This document shows, piece after piece, positions 1-13,496 of a DNA stretch of 13,496 nt. Position numbers and translations under genes: made by a program. Each line of letters begins with the position of its first letter. Within the stretch, counting starts at the first letter, position 1. Source of the DNA: a bacterium (GTDB taxonomy: Bacteria > UBP14 > UBA6098 > JAFGQG01); the NCBI GenBank assembly GCA_016930435.1, contig JAFGGQ010000156.1, positions 1-13,496 of the forward strand, written 5' to 3'. The notes under the pieces were generated by a model that did no database searches, was not told the origin of the DNA, and saw nothing but the letters and a program-made list of their open reading frames with translations.

Positions 1-566
1 CCTGAAAAATTCCAATGCCCATAAAAGTATTCATTCCATTCTTCTTTCGATAGTCTTGAAGCTTCTTTTATATCTTTCGGCACCGAACGTGTTTTTCCTC
101 TTTTCTTGAAAATCAAAATGAATTCATAATCAATCTTTATTATCCCATTTCTTGGATAAGGATAAGAGCCCATTATTGTTGCACCACCTGTAGTGTTGCA
201 GGTTGTTACTTTCTGCCATATTATTGCCCCCATATAATCAAAGCCAATTACCTCACAAAATTTAATAATCTCAGTTCGAATTGGAATTACTTTATATCTT
301 CCATAATAAACAGAACGTGCAAATTGATCTCCGATATTTACACAAAGCCTGCAACCATTCCCAAGAACACGGTAACACTCTTTCCAAACCAGGTTTAGAT
401 TATTAATGTATTCTTCATAGCTATCATTGAAACCAATCTGATTTCCATCTCCATAATCTTTAAGTTGCCAATAAGGAGGAGAAGTGACAACAAGGTTTAC
501 CGCATTGTCTTTAACAGATTCCATTTGCCTGGAATCACCGATTATTATTTTGTGAGAAGTTTTCAT
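1..566 (-). CDS. Site-specific DNA methyltransferase, TSPPYW type (partial, C-terminus off window)
   Basis: The first 188 residues of a DNA methyltransferase are visible; the gene runs off the left edge. Residues 28-33 read TSPPYW, the catalytic motif IV typical of N4-cytosine (sometimes N6-adenine) DNA methyltransferases, close to the N-terminus. A catalytic motif this early, with no FxGxG SAM-binding motif before it, is the motif order of the beta class, so SAM-binding motif I should lie off the window. The N-terminus (KIIIGDSRQME) is also typical of these enzymes. The start at 566 is the first ATG after in-frame stops; the Shine-Dalgarno is weak. The gene is AT-rich and forms the third cassette, beginning just after the attC-like site at 626-756. 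It could be an orphan methyltransferase or half of a restriction-modification pair; no nuclease is visible in this window. Confidence 0.88.
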   Translation of the reverse strand, partial: MKTSHKIIIGDSRQMESVKDNAVNLVVTSPPYWQLKDYGDGNQIGFNDSYEEYINNLNLVWKECYRVLGNGCRLCVNIGDQFARSVYYGRYKVIPIRTEIIKFCEVIGFDYMGAIIWQKVTTCNTTGGATIMGSYPYPRNGIIKIDYEFILIFKKRGKTRSVPKDIKEASRLSKEEWNEYFYGHWNFS

Positions 567-625
567 AGTATGTTAATATAAATGATATTCCATTTATAGA
601 AAAGAAAAAATTATCTCTGTCTTTC

Positions 626-756
626 TAATGGGCGCCGGGTCAGCTGCAGAGCCGGGAACAAGCTTTGCTTGGACTCGAAGCCGAAAGGTGCAACCGGTTT
701 GTCTCTGCGCGTGTAGCGCAACGGAGTAAAAATCCAGTGCAGCGATTTGTTAGCCC
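626..756 (-). repeat. Long attC-like recombination site at the 3' end of the DUF262 cassette (repeat copy 1)
   Basis: Read on the minus strand, the site opens with GGGCTAAC (756-749), which contains the DUF262 stop codon, followed by AAATCGCTGCA, a common attC left-hand sequence. It closes with GCGCCCA|TTAG (core at 629/628). Outer arms can pair: GCTGCA (643-648) with TGCAGC (738-743), and ATGGGC (628-633) with GCCCAT (753-758). The length of about 130 bp is at the upper end of known attC sites. The inner 95 bp (626-720) recurs at 4257-4351 with 6 mismatches. The base before TT is A rather than the G usual in attC cores. Spurious reading frames cross the site and should not be annotated as genes. 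Confidence 0.75.
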
Positions 757-3008
757 ATAAACCGCTGTTTGATATATTCCTGCGTCTGACTTGCACTTAG
801 CTCTGTGGTAGAAGGCCCTGTGCGTATATAAAACCGTTCGATATTGCCGTCTTTGAGAAATATCGGCGTTGGAGATTTTCGACATTTTATAACCATAACC
901 CGGCAGTCATCATGATCATCGAAATGAGCGTGTAGGCTGGTCATAGCTTGGACGCCCATACGAGATTTAACGATATTCACCAGATGCAGGCTCATCTTGT
1001 CTTCATTGGTAAAATCATCTGCTTGTATCCCAACTGGAGTGCCATCATCCGAAAGCCCTATAACCAACATGCCACCATTTGTGTTTAAAAAACCTGACAG
1101 AGTCTTGAGTACTGCCAACTCCATGCGACCGTCTTTGTCACCGGTATGTAGATTCGTACGCAGGGTAGACTTAAACTCGACCGCCTCTGATTCGCCATTT
1201 AAAACTAATTTTGACAGATCAATCTCCGCCTCCTCCAAATCTTCTCCGATTCTTTCAGCAACAAGAGTAGAGTAACCTTCTGCGATCACCTGTGCCATAA
1301 GCTCACGCCGTTTCTCCAGAAAGTCACGGTAATCAAGGTGCTCCCAGTTTGGAGGGAGCGCATGTAATCGATACATCCGCTCAAGCTCCATTTTGTTGAA
1401 CCTTGCTTTCATATTGGGCAAGTAATCTGCAGGTGCTTGATCGGAGATATTTGCATTATCACCCCATTCCACCAAGGCGTAGTTGGCAATCTGATTGGTA
1501 TCCCGGATGCCTGTAATCTTTTGTTTACTAAGGAAGCCTTTGGGGAATAGATGATGCCGTTCCACGGCGGCGCGGTTTGCATGCATTGATGGGTCAAGCA
1601 AATCTGCCACCTTGATCTTGGAGAAAAGTGCTTTTGCATCCAAAAGCACCAGCGCTGCATGATACGCGAATAAAGATGGGCTTCGCGGAGAAGATGTGGC
1701 CAAGTCATTTGGTAACGATACGGCCCAAAAATCATTAGTAAGGGTGATGTCACAAATATGGCTAAGGGTCCTCACAAATTCATCAGAGGTTTCCACGTCC
1801 CGTAAACGGGCCAAATCAAATTCCATTGCTGATTCTGGCGAACCAGTAAAACGACCGGTAACAGCAGACATAAAAAACCAGCGAGCAATCACACGCCGAA
1901 GGTCGAACTCGGGCACATTGTACTCGGTGCGACCAATCAGGTAAAGAATGTAAGAAAATAAAAGGTTGTTTTGCGAGCTGATCATTTTGCCACTGCGGAA
2001 ACCGGCTTGGCGAATACAATTCATGAAGTCATGCCAATATTGCAGGTTTAGTGTCCGTTGCTGTGCATCCTTGAGCAATTTAAATTGCTGCTCCCGGCGC
2101 TCATCACTAAACTTTTCTGTTTCCAAATCTTTGCCGCGCAAAATCGAGTAGACGTATTTCAACCTGGCACGCTTAAATGCCAGGCCGACGCCGACTCTCA
2201 ACAACTGATCTGGAGACGGTTCAATAAAGTGATTAAACGGTGAGGCCTCGCTTTTTGATGGCTTGCGAGATTCGCGACAGAATTGCTCTAGTGTGGCGCG
2301 CCCCTCGTCCCAAAAAACCGACATTAAGGTTAGAATAAAGTCGGCTTGATTTAGCGGAGTTCCCTTGCTATTGATTCGCACAAAAACATCTGAAACGGCC
2401 TCCTCATCAATATCCGATGCCAATTCGAGGGCAGTGAATGGAAAACTCAATAACCCCTGAAGTTTACTTATCGATTTCTTGATAGCCTTGCTCTCTTCAG
2501 TGCTGACTTCACGGGATGAACTTAGACCATCAAGATAGTTTTCAACCACCTCAAAAAGATCAGTTTTATCATTCCAGAGCAAGGAAATAGACGGGATAAA
2601 AGATTTGTCCCGACGAATAGCGGCATCCGCCACCTCAAATCTTTCTTCCAGTGGATTAAATGCAATATGTATTTGTTCGCTTTCGAAATTCTCGCGCAAC
2701 ACGGGAATGTTCTTAACAACTGCATAAAGAGAAGTAAGGCGCTGCTGGCCGTCCACGATAACAAGCCGTGGGGGTTTTTGTTTGCTATCGATACCAATGG
2801 TTCGAGCAGAGTCGGTTAAGGCGTTTTGCCAGAAAAGCAGATAACCCACGGGATAGCCTCTATACATGGAATCAAATAGATCCCGCACCTTTGCATTCTT
2901 CCAGACAAATGGCCGCTGGATGTCAGGCAATCCTATCTCACCAAGACCAATATATTTGACTAATGAGCCAAGGTCATAATCGACTTTTGTGAATACGGTT
3001 TCGCTCAT
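750..3008 (-). CDS. DUF262 / HNH-like / AlbA_2 fusion protein, GmrSD-related defence candidate
   Basis: A 752-residue protein with three parts. Residues 8-100 are a DUF262 (GmrS-like, ParB/sulfiredoxin-fold) domain, with IQRPFVW at 30-36 and the signature DGQQR at 86-90. Residues 480-525 hold an HNH-like segment: HHLFPK at 485-490 followed by the Asn-rich NQIANYALV and NANIS, as in the DUF1524 half of GmrSD proteins. Residues 605-750 match an AlbA_2 (Schlafen-type) domain: AVEFKSTLR, then a Gly-rich FLNTNGGMLVIGLSDDG. Known: GmrSD proteins are NTP-dependent type IV enzymes that cut modified phage DNA; DUF262 family members are frequent in defence islands. Inferred: anti-phage function, with the extra AlbA_2 domain binding nucleic acid. 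The start is well set: a GGAG Shine-Dalgarno sits 6 nt before ATG and only 19 nt after the cassette boundary. The stop lies inside the attC-like box, typical of compact cassettes. Confidence 0.85.
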   Translation of the reverse strand: MSETVFTKVDYDLGSLVKYIGLGEIGLPDIQRPFVWKNAKVRDLFDSMYRGYPVGYLLFWQNALTDSARTIGIDSKQKPPRLVIVDGQQRLTSLYAVVKNIPVLRENFESEQIHIAFNPLEERFEVADAAIRRDKSFIPSISLLWNDKTDLFEVVENYLDGLSSSREVSTEESKAIKKSISKLQGLLSFPFTALELASDIDEEAVSDVFVRINSKGTPLNQADFILTLMSVFWDEGRATLEQFCRESRKPSKSEASPFNHFIEPSPDQLLRVGVGLAFKRARLKYVYSILRGKDLETEKFSDERREQQFKLLKDAQQRTLNLQYWHDFMNCIRQAGFRSGKMISSQNNLLFSYILYLIGRTEYNVPEFDLRRVIARWFFMSAVTGRFTGSPESAMEFDLARLRDVETSDEFVRTLSHICDITLTNDFWAVSLPNDLATSSPRSPSLFAYHAALVLLDAKALFSKIKVADLLDPSMHANRAAVERHHLFPKGFLSKQKITGIRDTNQIANYALVEWGDNANISDQAPADYLPNMKARFNKMELERMYRLHALPPNWEHLDYRDFLEKRRELMAQVIAEGYSTLVAERIGEDLEEAEIDLSKLVLNGESEAVEFKSTLRTNLHTGDKDGRMELAVLKTLSGFLNTNGGMLVIGLSDDGTPVGIQADDFTNEDKMSLHLVNIVKSRMGVQAMTSLHAHFDDHDDCRVMVIKCRKSPTPIFLKDGNIERFYIRTGPSTTELSASQTQEYIKQRFMG

Positions 3009-3020
3009 TCTTACTCCATT

Positions 3021-3097
3021 GGGCTAACATTGAAAATCACCTGCCTTTGGAGCAGCTTGAGCCGCGGAAAAGGTCAGGTGGATTGCCTTGTTATAGG
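3021..3097 (-). repeat. attC site between the KilA-N and DUF262 cassettes
   Basis: On the minus strand the site runs from CCTATAAC (3097-3090) to GTTAGCCC (3028-3021), 77 bp in all, starting 3 nt after the KilA-N stop codon. The inner arms AATCACCTGCC (3035-3045) and GGTCAGGTGGATT (3072-3084) pair along 11 bp and leave two single bases bulged on one side. Such bulged (extrahelical) bases direct integrase to the correct strand in known attC sites. The core is a standard G|TT (3028/3027). The two end boxes do not match each other, as expected for a linear array where they belong to two different cassettes: GTTAGCCC matches the 3' box at 749-756, and CCTATAAC matches the cassette start at 4259. 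Confidence 0.85.
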
Positions 3098-3100
3098 TCT

Positions 3101-3916
3101 TTATTTTTGCTCCATGCGTTTAACTGCGAACTCGTCTATTAATAGCTTCATCTGCTGGATCGCAATTTTATTTAATTTTACCAACCGTTTTTCTTGAGAA
3201 ATACCTTCAGAGATAAACAAGGCGTTTAGATTTTCCAAGTTAGATAAACATATCAGCTGTGATATATTGGCATAATCTCTGATATTTCCTTTTTTGTCAG
3301 GATTTTTACTGCGCCACTCCTGCGCTGTCATCCCAAACAAAGCCATATTTAGGATATCAGCTTCAGAGGCATAGATATGATTGATTTGAGTTTTTGATAA
3401 TTCTAAAGGGATTAGATTTTCTTTGATGGCGTCAGTATGAATACGGTAATTTATCTTAGCAAGATTCCTTTTTATATCCCAACCAAGTAATTTTTGCTCT
3501 TCATTTTTAAGTCTTTGAAATTCTTTAATCAGGTACAATTTGAACTCTACGGATATCCATGAAGCAAATTCAAAAGCAATATCCTTATGGGCGTATGTTC
3601 CGCCGTATCTTCCGGCTTTCGAGATCAGCCCAATGGCGTTTGTCGATGTGATCCATTGTTTTGGGGTCAGGGTAAAGCTGTTAAGACCGGCTTGTTTTCT
3701 AAACCCGTCGAATTCCACGGGTTTAAAATCAGGATTGTTTAAATGTTCCCAAACCCCTAAAAATTCAATGGTATTGCGGTTTCTTAACCAGTTTCTGATA
3801 AGATCGTCAGTTCTTTCCGGATTCTTATATCGTGCGATATCTGTAATGCAGATGTAGTCTTCCTTATCCTGCTTAAATACAGTGATCTCTTTGCCTTTAA
3901 CCTTTATAGTTGCCAT
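3101..3916 (-). CDS. KilA-N domain protein
   Basis: A 271-residue protein starting MATIKVKGKEITVF. The N-terminal half is a KilA-N domain (about residues 10-135): DYICITDIARYKNP at 20-33, then a strongly conserved block GRYGGTYAHKDIAFEFASW (102-120) and EFKLYLIKEFQRLK (124-137). The C-terminal half is a helical region with DAIKENLIP and ALFGMTAQEWR, found in full-length bacterial members. Known: KilA-N is a small DNA-binding domain of phage and poxvirus proteins, also frequent in bacterial accessory regions; the cellular role of this form is unknown. The frame stays open upstream to 4147, but I chose 3916 because a GAAGG Shine-Dalgarno lies 8-9 nt before this ATG and the family starts here. 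The upstream extension resembles a different protein. The gene is AT-rich and occupies the cassette nearest intI. Confidence 0.85.
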   Translation of the reverse strand: MATIKVKGKEITVFKQDKEDYICITDIARYKNPERTDDLIRNWLRNRNTIEFLGVWEHLNNPDFKPVEFDGFRKQAGLNSFTLTPKQWITSTNAIGLISKAGRYGGTYAHKDIAFEFASWISVEFKLYLIKEFQRLKNEEQKLLGWDIKRNLAKINYRIHTDAIKENLIPLELSKTQINHIYASEADILNMALFGMTAQEWRSKNPDKKGNIRDYANISQLICLSNLENLNALFISEGISQEKRLVKLNKIAIQQMKLLIDEFAVKRMEQK

Positions 3917-4242
3917 AGCATATGCCTTCTCAACCAATTCCTTTGCCGCTCTGTGTAATTCTTCTGTACTTATGGATATATAATTATTCCATATTGTACC
4001 ATTAATATCATTGGGGTATCCCAGTAGATTGTTTATGCAGTTTATTATAACGATTTTTATTTCTTGATCATATTTTATATTGGGCCATAGGTCTGCTATT
4101 ATTGAAGTTTTTCTATAGAAACACCTATCACTAAGGGCACTTCCCAATATGGATTTTCCGAATTTTTATCCTTTATAAATGGCCCATAAGCTATTGCCTT
4201 TAAGCATTCTCCGATAATCTTGTTTTTTTCTTCATTATTAAT
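3917..4242 (-). pseudogene. Small conserved-type gene broken by a frameshift, upstream of the KilA-N gene
   Basis: Two adjacent reading frames together make one protein of about 100 residues. Part 1 (4242 to about 4110) reads INNEEKNKIIGECLKAIAYG, then PFIKDKNSENPYWEVPLVIGVSIEK, and stops. Part 2 (about 4107 to 3917, a different frame) continues IIADLWPNIKYD and NCINNLLGYPND. The join is at a run of five A residues on the coding strand (4108-4112); a sixth A would restore one frame. From memory, small bacterial proteins with GPFF-DWEF-LFG followed by NNxLNNLLGYP have this layout, but I cannot name a family. No ATG begins part 1; ATT at 4242, or a lost start, is possible. Part 2 runs in frame into KilA-N without a stop. 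A sequencing error in the A-run is a real alternative to mutation. Confidence 0.6.
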
Positions 4243-4256
4243 TTTCTTTTATCCTA

Positions 4257-4385
4257 TAATGGGCACCGGGTCACCTGCAGAGCCGGGAACAAGCTTTGCT
4301 TAGACTCGAAGCCGAAAGGCGCAACCGGTTTGTTCCTGCGCGTGTAGCGCAAAGGGACAATTTGGGCGGACGCACGGCGCCCATT
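4257..4385 (-). repeat. Long attC-like site upstream of the first intact cassette (repeat copy 2)
   Basis: Bases 4257-4351 repeat 626-720 with 6 mismatches by eye. The element is bounded by AATGGGCACCG (4258-4268) and CGGCGCCCATT (4375-4385), an inverted repeat matching at 10 of 11 positions. GGAACAA (4286-4292) can also pair with TTGTTCC (4330-4336). On the minus strand it ends CCCA|TTATAGG, so the next cassette starts at 4259. Unlike copy 1 it lacks a clear AAC box at its far end; that part differs completely from copy 1. Beyond it, 4390-4407 forms a short GC-rich hairpin (CGGCG...CGCCG). Inferred: a remnant attC of a lost or gene-less cassette between attI and the KilA-N cassette. A small palindromic element inserted next to both sites is an alternative. 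Confidence 0.65.
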
Positions 4386-4444
4386 CCAGCGGCGCGAAGC
4401 GACGCCGGAACAAGTAATTCTATTGTTTTCTGTATAATATCCAA

Positions 4445-4472
4445 AATCTAAAACATTGTTGTTGACAGTCAA
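4445..4472 (-). promoter_or_regulatory. Candidate cassette promoter (Pc-like)
   Basis: On the minus strand, TTGACT (4472-4467) is followed after 16 bp by TAGATT (4450-4445), 5/6 and 4/6 matches to the sigma-70 consensus. It points into the cassette array, as Pc does in other integrons. It shares base 4467 and a palindrome with the opposed intI promoter candidate. Between it and the first cassette start (4259) lie repeat copy 2 and a GC-rich hairpin. Predicted from pattern only. Confidence 0.4.
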
Positions 4473-4490
4473 GTAAAAACTAACTGTTAT
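4462..4490 (+). promoter_or_regulatory. Candidate intI promoter
   Basis: TTGACA (4462-4467), a perfect -35, is followed after 17 bp by TGTTAT (4485-4490), a 4/6 match to -10. The intI fragment starts 31 bp downstream at 4522. The -35 box is the left half of the perfect palindrome TTGACAGTCAA (4462-4472), whose other half reads TTGACT on the opposite strand. No clear LexA-type CTGT-N8-ACAG box is visible here. Confidence 0.5.
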
Positions 4491-4521
4491 GTCATAAATC
4501 TAACTATATTTAATAATAGAA

Positions 4522-4842
4522 ATGTGGCATTATTTCCCCAGAACTTATAAAACGTATGCTGCCTGTCTCCGAAAGTTCCAGTATTTCACCAGGCATCAAC
4601 ATCCTGATTCTATAAGCACTGAGGAAGTAAAAGCATATCTAACACATTTAGCAGTTAATAAAAAAGTTGCCGCTTCTACTCAAAACCAGCACTTTAACGC
4701 CCTTCTATTCCTATTTAAACATATCCTTAAACGAGAGAAAAATTTCTCTGGTTTCGAAGGAGTGCCCAGAGCGGAAAAAAGGTTCATATGCAATTTAGTT
4801 GCATGGTATTATTTGAAATTTACCATAACTGCCACTGGATGA
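4522..4842 (+). pseudogene. intI: Integron integrase IntI, N-terminal fragment
   Basis: 106 codons, of which about the first 87 match the N-terminal (SAM-like, core-binding) domain of integron integrases: HYFPRTYKTYA at 3-13, TEEVKAYLTHLAV at 33-45, then KKVAASTQNQHFNALLFLFK at 47-66. The run AxSTQNQxxNALLFL is highly characteristic of IntI and closely related tyrosine recombinases. Homology ends near 4782 after GVPRAEKR. The remaining 19 codons look unrelated, and the whole catalytic domain (Arg, His-x-x-Arg, Tyr, and the IntI-specific patch), normally about 230 more residues, is absent from all frames down to 4984. The N-terminus starts a little later than in full-length IntI (about 337 residues in IntI1). 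It is divergent from the cassette genes, the usual intI orientation. It should be inactive. Confidence 0.88.
4788..4804. repeat. Short inverted repeat at the intI break
   Basis: ATGCAA (4788-4793) and TTGCAT (4799-4804) are exact inverted copies around a 5-bp loop. The repeat sits 5 bp after IntI similarity stops (about 4782). It may be a scar of the event that removed the 3' part of intI, or chance in AT-rich DNA. Confidence 0.35.
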
Positions 4843-4863
4843 ATGGATGGTTGGATGACTGGA
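4836..4863. repeat. 8-bp near-tandem repeat, 3.5 units
   Basis: Units TGGATGAA (4836-4843), TGGATGGT (4844-4851), TGGATGAC (4852-4859) and a partial TGGA (4860-4863) share the core TGGATG. It overlaps the stop codon of the intI fragment and lies in the junction between the integron and the convergent acyl-CoA synthetase gene. The function is unknown; slippage-prone junction DNA is the simplest reading. Confidence 0.55.
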
Positions 4864-4983: not shown

Positions 4984-7900
4984 TTAACTGTTCAAGAACC
5001 TGATCAGTCCGCCATACCGTTGATCCACACCAAACCCATGCGGCAGATAAAAATCGATAAGCATGAACTGGGTTTTAACCGCCTTGAAATTCAGGGTTTT
5101 CATCCGATTACAGAAGTCCTCGAGCAATGCACCGGCAATTCCCCTGTGTCTTAAAGACCCAGTAATAATTAGACCATCAAGGTCTATTATATTTGTTTCC
5201 AGAATTTTATAGGATAATCCTCCCAGGACAATATCCTGTTTGTCCAGTACGACAAGGTAGTGGTTTGAGGATGATATAGTCCTTGGCAATCCTGATTTCA
5301 GCATCATCCGGTACAAACGGCCGACTTCAGATGCCTCCAGTGGTTCGCGAACGTAGTAAGACCCTCCTTTCTTATCGGAAATCTGTGTGGTAACCACAAG
5401 TCCGTCTTCTCCCCTTTGAGCAAGGTTTACCACCTTAATTGGAGAGGATACTTTACCGCTGGGAAAAGCCATGTCGCTAAATGCGGCAAGTTCACCTTCT
5501 CCGGAAAGATATTCCTGCAAATCAGAGAGTTCCTGGAATCGGGTAGCTTCTTTACCGGGGTATAATGCCATTTGTTGGAGCAGAAGATCAAACCTGCGCC
5601 TGGTCTCATAACCTGCTTCCCGGAAATAAGTATAGCGATAAAAATAGTAGCGGCTGATAACCCCAAAGCGCCGGAGTCTGTATATTGCGTATAATTCATT
5701 GATAATCTCGATACGGGCTTCATCTGAAGCCTGAGGATTGAATTGGAGCCATTGTAAGTACCTTTGGACTGCGGACTGGAGTGGTAAAGGGGCCTGAAAT
5801 CCATCATTGTAGCGTTCAAGTACCCCCCTGATGAAAATGAGAGTATCGTTAGGCAAAGAGTGATTACCGGACAGTTGCAGCTCCCCCCGAAGTTCCTCCA
5901 GAAAACTGACTGCTTCTGTTTTTGTCAGGCTTTCAAAAAGGGCTTCCGGCAGCCAGGAGAAGTCCATATATCTCCTAAGAGAAGGAAAAGCGCTTTCCAC
6001 CGCAAGAAAAAATTGTATGTAGATAGAATTTAATAATCTTAAGGGACCATTGTATTCCTCCCATTGTAGGAGCGAAAGGAGACAGCAGTCCTCCTGGAAA
6101 TTATTAGGCGGAATATAGAGATTATGCGGGGAAAGATCACCCGGAACGATCCGGAAATTCGAGTTCCGCAAAAGCGTATATACTACTGATATAGCTCTGA
6201 TTATCAAGGTTTTCAGGTCGAATCGAAGAGCTTCCTGATCGTCAGTAAAATTCCTGGAACTCAATTCCTGCAGTCTTTTCCATACAGTCAGCCATTTATA
6301 TTCCGTAGTAAAAGCAGAATAATGATGATTATAGCTTCCCAGAGCAGGCAGGATATTCAGTCCGAAAGGATAATCATTAATGGCTGCCATCCAGTAGAAA
6401 GTATTTCTTGCCTGGCAGGGGTCTTGTAATATGGTAAGCAGCAGGTCAAAATGTTTACCGTTCTTTTTGTCTATATTTAAGAGAAATTGAGACCATTTCT
6501 CCTTTTGTTTATATGGCGCTATCCAGATCCCTTCATTCTGGATATCATCCAGGGCGAAGGGTTCACCATCAAAGGCATTTCTAAGTGATTCGGGAAGCAG
6601 GGAAGTGCTTGTAATCAACTTCATCAGGAGCCTTTTATCGGATTCTTCAACAGATTCCTGAAATGATAATTTAGGCTCCCAATTATTCAGGTTTTCAGTT
6701 GGCAGTTTAAGGTACGATTTTTGTTGTTCCTTTAGCATCATTCTATAATGCTTCAGGGCTTTATTTTCAATTTCCGGCTGGGTTGGGAAAACTACCCAAC
6801 TTAAGAGCATTCCCCTCACTTTGGGAAAATACTCGGGATAATTATGAACAAAATTCGCTAACAGTTCGAAGACCGTATTGAACTGATCCACGGTGTGGGT
6901 ACCCACCGGCCAGTTCAGCCTGGTGCGGTAATTATGCAGTCTTTTCTGCAGGGCGCTCAGGCGTGGTTTGTCCAGGTTTGCATGGGCAATCTGGGCGATG
7001 CTCCCGGGGTTAAGGAAGGGCAAACCGGAATAGATAAAGCCGGGGAATTGCTCGGTATAGTGCTCCTCCGGTTCATCAAGGAGCAGGATACGATAGGCAG
7101 CACACCGGACTTCAAAGCATGAATGGAAAGCCAGCGCACCCAGACGATAGCGGATCACATTTCTGAGCCGTATGTCGTACAAACCCAGTGCTTCTTCCAG
7201 ATGATCCAGCGCTGCAAGTGCTTTTTCAGGAGAAAAAAATAAAGCATCAGTACACCAGCGATTAACCCTGCTTACCTGCTGATCTTTGACCAGCGGCCAG
7301 TTTTGAGGGACATTGATCCGGTTAGTCATCCCAAGGGCATCCGGCAAGCTGACCTTGGGGGAAATCCCCTGCAGCGGATGATCCCAGCCCAGTTTACATT
7401 GAAAATAAGTCCAGAGATTGGGATTACCTATCCAGAGCCTGGGTTGCTTGATGAACGATCCCAGATCAACCCGTGAATCATTTAGTTGATAAAACAAATC
7501 GCCCACTTGCAATGCCGAGGAAGAGCTCTTGAACGCGATCTTAAGAAGTTCTCCTGAGCGCCGGTTATATATGCCCTCCGGCACTACTGTAAGGTCCTGT
7601 TTCAGTACTCCCAGATCGCGGTAAACCCAAAGCGGAATCTCTATTATCAGATCCTGAAATTTAATTATATTTTTATCACTCTTATAAAGTTCTTCGATAA
7701 CAGGGTTAAAATGCTCTAAAATGGCTTTTCGGTTATATGAACCTTTAGGGGTGATTTCGTTCCGGGCGAGCTCAAAATCTCGTTCTGCGAGTGCAAAATT
7801 TATCACCCGTTCATAAGGCGCAAGGTTCTGATTCGCTGTAAATATAATCTTTTGAAAATACTCCATGGTTTGTTCGGGTGAAGGGGATTCCCTGATCACC

Positions 7901-9588
7901 GGGTCATCATTTTGGGGGATTATCAGAAGGACGTTATAATCCCTGCCATCCCCAACCAGAAAAGCTCTTTTAAAACCAGGCACATCCAGAAATTCTTTTT
8001 CTATGGATCGTGGAGCAAGTGTCTGCCCCTTGCTGTTCTTATAAATGTCCTTTACCCGGTCCACAATTTCATAATAACCATTTTGATCAACCCTAAAAAT
8101 ATCACCTGTCGGCAGCCAGTATCCGGCTTCACCGGAATTAATATCCCGGTTCAGGTCTATTTCATCCAGATAACGTGCTACGTATGGCCCGTTTATCAAC
8201 ATCTCGCCAGTATCATTTAATCGTATATTCATACCGGGGAGGGTTTTGCCAACCGAATCCCGCAGGTATTCACCGGGAGGTGTCATGGTAATGCCTCCGG
8301 TAGCCTCGGTCATTCCAAAACCCGAGCAGAGGTTTACTCCAAGATCGTTGAAGAACTGGAATACATGGTGATTCAGGTATCCGGCGGCGGAAAGCCCCCA
8401 ATGCAATTTATCACCAACAGTTTCCCGAAAAAGGTGCTCACGGGCCGAAGGATTACTTATCCCCTCTATCATATCCTGGCAGTGTTCCCATAACTGCTGC
8501 CATCTCAGCGGTATCCCGATGAGAACAGAGGGTTGAATATTTCTCATCATGACCAGCAATGTATTCCAGGAAGCATTCTCGGCAAAGACGTACGTTCCCC
8601 CCCAAAAAAGCGTTCCTAACAGCTCCAGAAACCTGCCGAAGGTATGAAAAAGCGGGAGGTAGCAGAGCATTACCTCTTCATTTCCGACCCGGGGCAAAGC
8701 TGCCGCCCGGGCAAACCTCTTGGTTAGCAGATTATATTGATTATAAACAACACCCTTGGGAAGGCCCGTCGATCCGGAGGTATAAAGAGCTGTGCACGGT
8801 TTGAACAGGTCGATCTTCAGTTCTTTTAATAGATTCTCCCTCTGAAAAGAGGAAATCCCTGCAACCTCTTTATCCATCAAACGCACTGGGAAATCAGGGG
8901 TATCCTGAAACTGGTTTAAGCTTAGTATAATAACCTTCCTGCTAATACCCTTCAAGGCTTCCTGAACATTTTTCAGGCTCTCGGGGCTATCCAGAATTAC
9001 TATATTTATGGTCAGTTCCTGAAATATTTTACAGAGTATCCGGGGGCTGAAATGCACATTAAGGGGGGTCACAAAGATTCCAAACAAGAGACATGACAGG
9101 TCGCAGCAGGCATTGTCCACCGAATTCCCGGCTATAATGGCTACACGGGGTGGATCCGGAACCAGCGAAAGCAATAGCGCTGCGTAAGCCTGCAGTCTGT
9201 GGTAGATCTGACGGTAGTTCCAGCAAACATAATCCTGCCGAGCCCTTTCCATAAATAGAGTACGGTCGGGGTGTTCAGCCATTCGCTGTTCAAAGAGCGC
9301 CTTCAAGTCGAAATTACATCTCGGGATAAGGTGAAACGTAGTCTCCGCCCAGCGTTTACGATTATCTTCATTTACCAGGGCCTGCAGAAAAACTGGCTTT
9401 CGGGTAAGATCAAGATAATGGCGGCATTGTAAATCGGAAGGCTTTAGGGCTGACTCATCTAAAATACTCTTTTCTACCCCGGTCAGGATATCCATTGCGG
9501 CTGAAGGATCTACAAACCCTCTGTAAACCGCCTCCTCCAGATTTTTGAGTAATTCCGAAAAGCGGGGATTTTCAATCTCACTATTCAT
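4984..9588 (-). CDS. Giant multidomain protein: AMP-forming acyl-CoA synthetase, phosphotransferase-like middle, C-terminal GNAT
   Basis: 1534 residues. Residues 90-630 are an AMP-forming ligase of the long-chain acyl-CoA synthetase type: P-loop TALYTSGSTGLPKGV (266-280), YLPLFHTFGR (310-319), GFGMTEATGG (423-432), TGD (494-496), then IVDRVKDIYKNSKGQ (508-522) and ITPKGSYNRK (612-621), where the catalytic Lys is expected. A typical enzyme would end near here. Residues 640-1400 are mostly helical and unrecognised; VPGDLSPHN (1148-1156) resembles the catalytic loop of aminoglycoside/choline-type phosphotransferases (GDxxxxN), but I see no convincing N-lobe. Residues 1410-1530 are a GNAT acetyltransferase with the acetyl-CoA loop RHRGIAGALL (1480-1489) and LPHGFG (1515-1520). 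No signal peptide or clear membrane segment is seen. Inferred role: activating an acyl group and passing it on, perhaps in lipid or surface modification; the substrate is unknown. No Shine-Dalgarno precedes the ATG. The 3' end converges on the intI remnant. Confidence 0.82.
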   Translation of the reverse strand: MNSEIENPRFSELLKNLEEAVYRGFVDPSAAMDILTGVEKSILDESALKPSDLQCRHYLDLTRKPVFLQALVNEDNRKRWAETTFHLIPRCNFDLKALFEQRMAEHPDRTLFMERARQDYVCWNYRQIYHRLQAYAALLLSLVPDPPRVAIIAGNSVDNACCDLSCLLFGIFVTPLNVHFSPRILCKIFQELTINIVILDSPESLKNVQEALKGISRKVIILSLNQFQDTPDFPVRLMDKEVAGISSFQRENLLKELKIDLFKPCTALYTSGSTGLPKGVVYNQYNLLTKRFARAAALPRVGNEEVMLCYLPLFHTFGRFLELLGTLFWGGTYVFAENASWNTLLVMMRNIQPSVLIGIPLRWQQLWEHCQDMIEGISNPSAREHLFRETVGDKLHWGLSAAGYLNHHVFQFFNDLGVNLCSGFGMTEATGGITMTPPGEYLRDSVGKTLPGMNIRLNDTGEMLINGPYVARYLDEIDLNRDINSGEAGYWLPTGDIFRVDQNGYYEIVDRVKDIYKNSKGQTLAPRSIEKEFLDVPGFKRAFLVGDGRDYNVLLIIPQNDDPVIRESPSPEQTMEYFQKIIFTANQNLAPYERVINFALAERDFELARNEITPKGSYNRKAILEHFNPVIEELYKSDKNIIKFQDLIIEIPLWVYRDLGVLKQDLTVVPEGIYNRRSGELLKIAFKSSSSALQVGDLFYQLNDSRVDLGSFIKQPRLWIGNPNLWTYFQCKLGWDHPLQGISPKVSLPDALGMTNRINVPQNWPLVKDQQVSRVNRWCTDALFFSPEKALAALDHLEEALGLYDIRLRNVIRYRLGALAFHSCFEVRCAAYRILLLDEPEEHYTEQFPGFIYSGLPFLNPGSIAQIAHANLDKPRLSALQKRLHNYRTRLNWPVGTHTVDQFNTVFELLANFVHNYPEYFPKVRGMLLSWVVFPTQPEIENKALKHYRMMLKEQQKSYLKLPTENLNNWEPKLSFQESVEESDKRLLMKLITSTSLLPESLRNAFDGEPFALDDIQNEGIWIAPYKQKEKWSQFLLNIDKKNGKHFDLLLTILQDPCQARNTFYWMAAINDYPFGLNILPALGSYNHHYSAFTTEYKWLTVWKRLQELSSRNFTDDQEALRFDLKTLIIRAISVVYTLLRNSNFRIVPGDLSPHNLYIPPNNFQEDCCLLSLLQWEEYNGPLRLLNSIYIQFFLAVESAFPSLRRYMDFSWLPEALFESLTKTEAVSFLEELRGELQLSGNHSLPNDTLIFIRGVLERYNDGFQAPLPLQSAVQRYLQWLQFNPQASDEARIEIINELYAIYRLRRFGVISRYYFYRYTYFREAGYETRRRFDLLLQQMALYPGKEATRFQELSDLQEYLSGEGELAAFSDMAFPSGKVSSPIKVVNLAQRGEDGLVVTTQISDKKGGSYYVREPLEASEVGRLYRMMLKSGLPRTISSSNHYLVVLDKQDIVLGGLSYKILETNIIDLDGLIITGSLRHRGIAGALLEDFCNRMKTLNFKAVKTQFMLIDFYLPHGFGVDQRYGGLIRFLNS

Positions 9589-12555: not shown

Positions 12556-13050
12556 TTACTCCTTGGCTATCGTTATGAATTCCAACTTGATCTTGGTTTT
12601 TTCCAGCATATCCCTGGTCAGATTAGTTGATATGCTGTCCAGTTGAGGGAAAGAAGGCATTCCATTTATGTAAATTTCCTTAATCCCCGAGTTTATAAGC
12701 ATCTTCAAACAGATGATGCAGGGAAACCTTGTAGAATAAAGAATGGAATTTTGGGTACTGACACCGAAAATAGCTGCTTGAATGATAGCGTTCTGAATAG
12801 CGTGAAGTCCCCTGCAGATCTCCTGTTTTTCATCACCGTGAAGGCCCCTTTGGTCCCGAAGGCATCCCACTTCCAGACAGCTATCTATCCCGGCTGGTGC
12901 CCCATTGTATCCGGTGGTCAGGATTCGCCGTTCACGGACCAGGATCGCCCCCTGTTTTTCCTTCAGGCAGGTGGAGCGGTTGGAGACAAAATCCGTTACC
13001 CGCATAAAATATTCGTTCCAGGAGGGCCGGTTTAAATCAGATTTGCTCAT
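12556..13050 (-). CDS. dCMP-deaminase-like protein lacking the catalytic Glu (probable pseudoenzyme)
   Basis: 164 residues, closely similar in layout to the protein encoded immediately upstream and to dCMP deaminases (ComEB type). Zinc-site residues are present: H83 in GLHAIQNAI and C111/C114 in PCIIC. The second metal-site residues of this subfamily also appear to remain (C58, C63, H71, C79). However, the Glu that follows HA in the catalytic HAE motif and shuttles the proton is Ile85 here (codon ATT). Deamination is therefore unlikely. Inferred: a divergent duplicate kept for a structural or regulatory role, such as mixed hexamers with the active copy, or an early stage of decay; the reading frame is intact. 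The start overlaps the upstream gene by 14 bp. The first residues (RPSWNEYFM) align with the upstream copy (RPSWDQYFM), which supports this start. Confidence 0.9.
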
Positions 13051-13496
13051 GTTCTATCTTGTGTATCTTAATTTTACTTTCCTTTAATAACAATGAACTC
13101 AATTCATCGGGGTAATAATCTGCCAGATAAATTTCCTTAATACGGGCATTTATAAGCATCTTGGTGCAGATCACGCAAGGCTGATTAGTGCAATATAGAA
13201 TGCTGTTTTCCAGACTAATACCAAACAAGGCTGCCTGGATTATTGCGTTTTGCTCGGCATGCAGACCCCGGCATAACTCATGATGTTCACCCGAAGGAAT
13301 TCCAAGCTCATCCCTCAAACAGCCAATTTCCAAACAATGGTCCATCCCGGTCGGCGCTCCGTTGTAACCCGTGGTAAGAATACGATTATTACGAACCATC
13401 ACTGCTCCTACCTTGCGGCGCTTGCAGGTTGAACGGGAGGCCACTAAAAATGCCATTTGCATAAAATATTGGTCCCAGGAGGGCCGTTTACTGTTA
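13037..13496 (-). CDS. dCMP deaminase, ComEB type (partial, N-terminus off window)
   Basis: Zinc-dependent cytidylate deaminase producing dUMP from dCMP for dTMP synthesis. 152 residues are visible, starting [12 protein letters not shown]; the start codon lies just beyond the right edge, since the frame is open and the paralogue begins only a few residues earlier. An internal ATG at 13462 is too late because it would cut the conserved RPSW segment. The catalytic set is complete: HAEQNAI with the proton-shuttle Glu, and PCVIC supplying two zinc Cys ligands. The [10 protein letters not shown]...ELCRGLH stretch is the extra metal site of the ComEB/phage T4-like group. It overlaps the downstream paralogue by 14 bp and is the first visible gene of the cluster. 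Confidence 0.93.

What the first reader, a model, noticed from the sequence alone, without database searches (positions are those of the whole stretch)
1..4842. A decayed chromosomal integron whose visible cassettes all look like defence or mobile-DNA genes
An IntI N-terminal fragment divergent from a same-strand array of genes separated by attC-like sites is integron architecture. The cargo (KilA-N protein, DUF262/HNH/AlbA_2 protein, TSPPYW DNA methyltransferase) is not metabolic; two of the three types belong to restriction-like families. This would be a small defence-carrying integron in a Gram-negative lineage I cannot place. The organisation is seen in the sequence; the defence role is inferred from family knowledge.
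Basis: partly seen in the sequence, partly recalled or inferred. Interest (0 to 1): 0.75.

Follow-up and report, generated by a model that had tools for sequence, protein, structure and literature searches.

The report
Broken chromosomal integron with restriction genes
This is the remnant of a gene-capturing platform (an integron) in an uncultured bacterium, with a dead integrase, a recognisable insertion site and captured genes that look restriction- or phage-related; it is a further example of something already known, not a new kind of system.

Summary
The IntI fragment (4522-4779) is 72/86 identical to an intact integron integrase (366 bits) in the only other held genome of the same family. 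An attC covariance model built without window sequences finds 3022-3096 (29.6 bits, E 1.3e-4). Site 626-756 has only a good attC 5' half; 4257-4385 gives no hit. Those two share a 99-bp, 93%-identical 3' part found in no other genome searched. The same genome has two further attC sites, behind a type II methyltransferase-endonuclease pair and behind a DUF5655/PDC-S18 fragment. All five gene units linked to attI or attC in this genome match restriction or candidate-defence models, against one strong match among ten cassette genes from three other integrons. The KilA-N gene, however, is mainly a phage gene, and no function is tested. Integrons as defence stores were published in 2025.

The parts
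4522..4842 (+). Truncated intI: N-terminal SAM-like domain of an integron integrase (86 homologous codons, then 20 unrelated codons and a stop)
   Evidence: TIGR02249 69.8 bits; Phage_int_SAM_4; 72/86 identical to G001 IntI
4409..4505 (-). attI region; crossover between 4411 and 4410 (ACTTG^TT)
   Evidence: 74% to G001:C88, E 3.7e-11, match ends at GTT; alignment to G001:C42 ends at the same base, score 112 against shuffle maximum 55
4445..4472 (-). Candidate cassette promoter Pc: TTGACT-N16-TAGATT, 34 nt before the crossover
   Evidence: Same motif, spacing and distance in G001 C88 and C42; activity not tested
4257..4385 (-). Copy 2 of the 116-bp repeat; attC-like 3' half (L' box GCAGGTGA, end CCCA^TTA), no R'' box; not a complete attC
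   Evidence: 93% to copy 1 over 99 bp; no model hit
3101..3916 (-). KilA-N protein (271 aa from the ATG; PDC-S22)
   Evidence: KilA-N 86.7 bits; PDC-S22 454 bits; PHROG 2657 221.8 bits
3022..3096 (-). attC site, complete
   Evidence: 29.6 bits, E 1.3e-4; folds better than shuffles, z -2.1
750..3008 (-). 752-aa GmrSD_N (DUF262) + HNH-like motif + Schlafen AlbA_2 protein
   Evidence: GmrSD_N 109.8 bits, SLFN_AlbA_2 64 bits; HEC-05 119.8 bits
626..756 (-). Copy 1 of the repeat; hybrid or degenerate attC: good 5' half (R'' GGCTAAC overlapping the stop codon of the DUF262 gene), 3' half shared with copy 2, end CCCA^TTAGAA
   Evidence: Model 14.4 bits, E 0.21, 5' half only; first 40 nt 88% to G064 and 83% to a G060 attC
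3..566 (-). Type II-like DNA methyltransferase, N-terminal 188 aa, cut by the contig end
   Evidence: N6_N4_Mtase; MTase_II PDLC03259 344 bits, profile 2-186 of 423

Best explanation
A sedentary chromosomal integron that has lost its integrase. The intact ancestor had IntI, an attI site with an outward promoter, and cassettes taken in at attI through attC sites. In this lineage the catalytic part of intI has been lost, leaving an N-terminal fragment, the attI region and at least three captured genes read away from intI. Shown: the IntI fragment, the attI cut-off at G^TT, one complete attC in the window and two on other contigs, and the gene families. Inferred: that the genes entered by IntI recombination, that they are transcribed from the attI promoter, and that they act as restriction or anti-phage genes. 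The cassettes are probably frozen now unless an intact IntI lies in the missing 10% of the genome or arrives from outside.
For: IntI-specific model match and 84% identity to an intact IntI of the sister genome; that IntI is 41-45% identical to annotated integron integrases; attI conserved in three copies up to G^TT and no further in the window; conserved promoter-like motif at fixed distance; attC at 3022-3096 by a model built without the window; two more attC in the genome, behind a type II RM pair and a DUF5655/PDC-S18 fragment; only XerC and XerD besides in the genome.
Against: Two of three proposed attC sites are not complete attC. No empty-site comparison was possible: the neighbouring 1534-aa gene was not found in seven other genomes of the class. 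G001 shows no attC although it has an intact IntI. The contig ends inside the methyltransferase. The defence role rests on family models, some of them unproven candidates.
Confidence: 0.85

Rival explanations
1. An ordinary defence or phage-derived island beside a stray tyrosine-recombinase fragment; the repeats are island repeats and the attC-like hairpin is chance.
For: KilA-N protein is mostly in phages; its homologues in 18 other genomes have no attC beside them; two repeats are not attC by model.
Against: Fragment fits the IntI model and an intact IntI orthologue; attI similarity stops at G^TT; attC lies between two genes on the expected strand, E 1.3e-4.
Confidence: 0.08
2. All three proposed sites, including the 116-bp repeat copies, are working attC sites of an unusual long type that my model misses; the array is a normal series of cassettes.
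For: Both copies end CCCA^TTA; copy 2 has the L' box GCAGGTGA seen in both good attC sites nearby and on C171; copy 1 continues TTAGAAAGACAGA after the break, as does the C171 attC; copy 1 can pair GCTGCA with TGCAGC.
Against: No model support for copy 2 and weak support for copy 1; no fold signal; copy 2 has no R'' box; other shared 12-14-mers in the same comparison are chance.
Confidence: 0.2
3. The genes are cassettes but not defence genes: captured phage regulator, orphan methyltransferase and a DUF262 protein with another role.
For: KilA-N matches phage transcriptional regulators; no endonuclease partner seen for the window methyltransferase.
Against: Two-gene MTase+REase unit ended by an attC in the same genome; all five units match restriction or candidate-defence models, against one strong match in ten control cassette genes.
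Confidence: 0.3

Closest known systems
Sedentary chromosomal integrons as anti-phage stores (Darracq et al. 2025; Getz et al. 2025; as cited in PMC12444791 and PMC12409362)
   Same: IntI, attI, attC and same-strand cassettes with restriction-like cargo in a chromosome
   Different: Short, broken array; integrase truncated; large units (2.3-kb gene; two-gene RM unit on C171) where the literature stresses small defence cassettes; uncultured lineage
CALIN and attG insertions (attC clusters or single cassettes without integrase; Loot et al. 2024, cited in PMC12444791)
   Same: The C171 and C145 attC units have no integrase in the stretches read
   Different: The window still has attI and an intI fragment, so it is a decayed platform, not a CALIN
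GmrSD-type (DUF262/DUF1524) type IV restriction
   Same: GmrSD_N domain and HNH-like motif
   Different: C-terminal Schlafen AlbA_2 domain; best plasmid relative 37% identical over 88%; GmrSD_C model not hit
PADLOC candidate PDC-S22 (KilA-N)
   Same: 454 bits, nearly full length
   Different: Candidate only; most relatives found are phage regulators

Membership tests
integron | integron integrase (IntI) gene | tested here: met
   Met as a remnant only: N-terminal fragment, catalytic domain missing
integron | functional integrase in the genome | tested here: not met
   Only XerC and XerD otherwise; genome 90% complete
integron | attI next to intI | tested here: met
   4409-4505, similarity ends at G^TT
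integron | attC sites between same-strand genes | tested here: met
   One complete site 3022-3096; 626-756 half; 4257-4385 not detected
integron | Pc promoter reading into cassettes | tested here: inconclusive
   Conserved promoter-like motif in three attI copies; no expression data
integron | recombination at attI x attC | not testable with these tools
   needs an assay
sedentary chromosomal integron | chromosomal location | tested here: met
   pyrC-like, RfaE/HldE-type kinase and nrdR genes on the contig
sedentary chromosomal integron | large array (more than about 20 cassettes) | tested here: inconclusive
   Three genes seen, then contig end; three attC in the whole draft genome
anti-phage defence system | protects cells against phage | not testable with these tools
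   Family matches only

The most novel reading that the evidence does not exclude
In this uncultured lineage integrons serve almost only as restriction/defence stores and accept large or two-gene defence units (a 2.3-kb DUF262-AlbA_2 gene, a type II MTase+REase pair in one attC-ended unit and, in the sister genus, a whole type I restriction operon placed directly after an attI), in part through hybrid attC sites in which different 5' halves share one 3' half.
Probability: 0.2. Interest if true: 0.55.

Novelty: new member of a known kind. Interest (0 to 1): 0.36.

Why it matters
It adds an integron remnant from a poorly sampled lineage, with attI identified by comparison and a cargo in line with the 2025 proposal that integrons store defence genes. 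The two-gene restriction unit ended by an attC in the same genome bears on the supposed size limit of defence cassettes.

Tried and rejected
Rfam on the window, both modes: no hit. My own R''/R' arm scan finds 3022-3096 but shuffles reach the same scores, so I replaced it by a covariance model. The 116-bp repeat: a 20-base core pattern gave two Pseudomonas matches in 84,980 genomes that extend to only 22 nt, so chance; none in viral contigs or plasmids or in other genomes sampled. IntI fragment in viral contigs: none. Flank synteny: the 1534-aa neighbour was not found in seven other genomes of the class. attC beside KilA-N homologues: none. attC in G001: none. DUF262-AlbA_2 protein in viral contigs: none. 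Frameshifted small ORF upstream of the KilA-N gene: no family.

Full report
What was claimed. An IntI N-terminal fragment divergent from a same-strand gene array with attC-like sites at 626-756, 3021-3097 and 4257-4385, read as a small decayed integron carrying defence genes.

Setting. The window is an entire contig (C25, 13,496 bp) of a 2.85-Mb draft genome in 180 contigs, 90% complete, so nothing left of base 1 can be read. To the right lie a 1534-aa AMP-binding protein, a dihydroorotase, an RfaE/HldE-type kinase, NrdR and two ComEB-like deaminases: an ordinary chromosomal setting. Seventeen genomes of the class are held and only one other (G001) of the family. The host could not be named with these tools.

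Integrase. 4522-4842 gives TIGR02249 (integron integrase) 69.8 bits, other recombinase models less. A whole-genome search with that model gave this fragment and two other proteins, which I take as XerC and XerD from their neighbours (rlmH-like; topA/hslV-like) and because they miss the middle of the IntI profile. G001 has an intact IntI core above the curated cut-off (366 bits; 307-aa ORF), 44.8% identical to an annotated integron integrase of Kovacikia and 40.8% to IntI1. The window fragment is identical to it at 72 of 86 positions and then departs into 20 unrelated codons and a stop. The DNA beyond the break weakly resembles the region downstream of G001 intI (score 68, shuffle maximum 63), which would fit an internal deletion but is not proof.

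attI. Searching with the region beside G001 intI found further copies in G001. One, at C88, aligns to the window at 4409-4505 with E 3.7e-11, and the match stops at ACTTG^TT. The alignment with another copy (C42) stops at the same base, score 112 against a shuffle maximum of 55. That is how attI looks when different sequences follow G^TT. All three copies carry TTGACY-N16-TARATT pointing into the cassettes, ending 34 nt before the crossover: a candidate Pc promoter, function inferred. In G001:C88 the first genes after attI are a type I restriction operon, hsdM, a Schlafen AlbA_2 protein, hsdS and hsdR. No attC was found at its end, so I do not call that operon a cassette.

attC. With filters off the window gives one clear hit, 3022-3096(-), 29.6 bits, E 1.3e-4; then 716-755, 14.4 bits, E 0.21; then noise. 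As a control the model also recovers sites that were not seeds in other integron loci (for example L079 at 90, 608, 2758 and 3642). The two repeat copies (609-724 and 4240-4355) are therefore not complete attC sites. Copy 1 begins as a good attC: the stop codon of the DUF262 gene lies in its R'' box, and 40 nt of it recur in G064 (88%) and inside an attC of G060 (83%; that attC was a seed of the model). Its right half is the 99-bp segment shared with copy 2, ending CCCA^TTA rather than G^TTA. I read copy 1 as a degenerate or hybrid attC and copy 2 as the same 3' half with an unrelated left end. The segment was found nowhere else. How it arose is not explained.

More cassettes in the genome. 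The model finds two more sites: C171:2015-2086, 44.8 bits, directly behind a two-gene type II restriction unit (N6_N4 methyltransferase; MutH/MvaI_BcnI-type endonuclease), and C145:34809-34866, 27.1 bits, behind a DUF5655/PDC-S18 fragment. The whole-genome E-value of the C145 site is only 0.09, so it is the weaker of the two; for comparison the window site scores 0.027 there. The C171 unit starts at a good core site, GTTAGAC, at 485. No integrase lies in the stretches read, so these may be CALIN or attG-type insertions.

Cargo. KilA-N protein: PDC-S22, 454 bits, but also a phage transcriptional-regulator family and 51 viral loci at 48-77% identity; it was found in 18 other sampled genomes, with no attC beside it. 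A phage gene captured as a cassette is as likely as a defence gene. DUF262-AlbA_2 protein: restriction-like by domains, relatives on plasmids at most 37% identical in the best rows. Methyltransferase: type II-like, cut by the contig end; the rest was not found elsewhere in the genome. With C171 and C145, all five linked units match PADLOC models. Ten cassette genes from three other integrons gave one strong match (AriAB) and one weak TPR match. That control is small and not matched for size or lineage, and PADLOC includes unproven candidates, so this is suggestive only.

Compared with what is known. Integrons as anti-phage stores were reported in 2025 (Darracq, Getz, Kieffer), as cited in PMC12444791 and PMC12409362; I read passages of the citing papers, not the originals. 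PMC12444791 reports 1.8% of Xanthomonas cassette orthologues flagged by DefenseFinder. The present case is a further, degraded member. Somewhat unusual are the size of the units and the hybrid attC repeat.

Verdict. A real, degraded chromosomal integron. A defence role is plausible but untested. New member of a known kind.

Noticed in passing
L115 (G000:C171) 485-2086: Two-gene type II restriction unit (methyltransferase + MutH/MvaI_BcnI-type endonuclease) bounded by GTTAGAC and a 44.8-bit attC, with no integrase nearby: a lone cassette, perhaps an attG-type insertion.
   Followed up: partly
L116 (G000:C145) 3810-3867: attC-like site behind a DUF5655/PDC-S18 fragment, followed by an ORF that looks like a REP-associated transposase.
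   Followed up: partly
L028 and L029 (G001:C88): A type I restriction operon with an embedded AlbA_2 protein starts 86 bp after an attI copy from which intI is missing; no attC at its end.
   Followed up: partly
G001: C88:19113-19283, C42:75-218, C58:1-56, C186:9282-9426: The attI region is present in three good copies and one weak copy in the sister genome, in different surroundings, although only one intact intI is seen.
   Followed up: partly
L025 (G001:C58) 54-442: Reading frame upstream of the intact IntI looks like an N-terminal extension interrupted by one in-frame TAG; a partial second copy on C124 reads TGG there.
   Followed up: no
window 4843-4861; L025 1442-1475; L028 1342-1366: Short ATGGATGG-type repeats lie near the intI 3' side in all three loci.
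   Followed up: partly
window 4984-9588: 1534-aa protein with AMP-binding N-terminal part and long unassigned C-terminal part, not found in seven other genomes of the class.
   Followed up: partly
window 12556-13495: Two tandem ComEB-like dCMP deaminases, one cut by the contig end.
   Followed up: no
window 3917-4250: Between copy 2 and the KilA-N gene, a small coding-looking stretch broken by a frameshift, no known family.
   Followed up: partly
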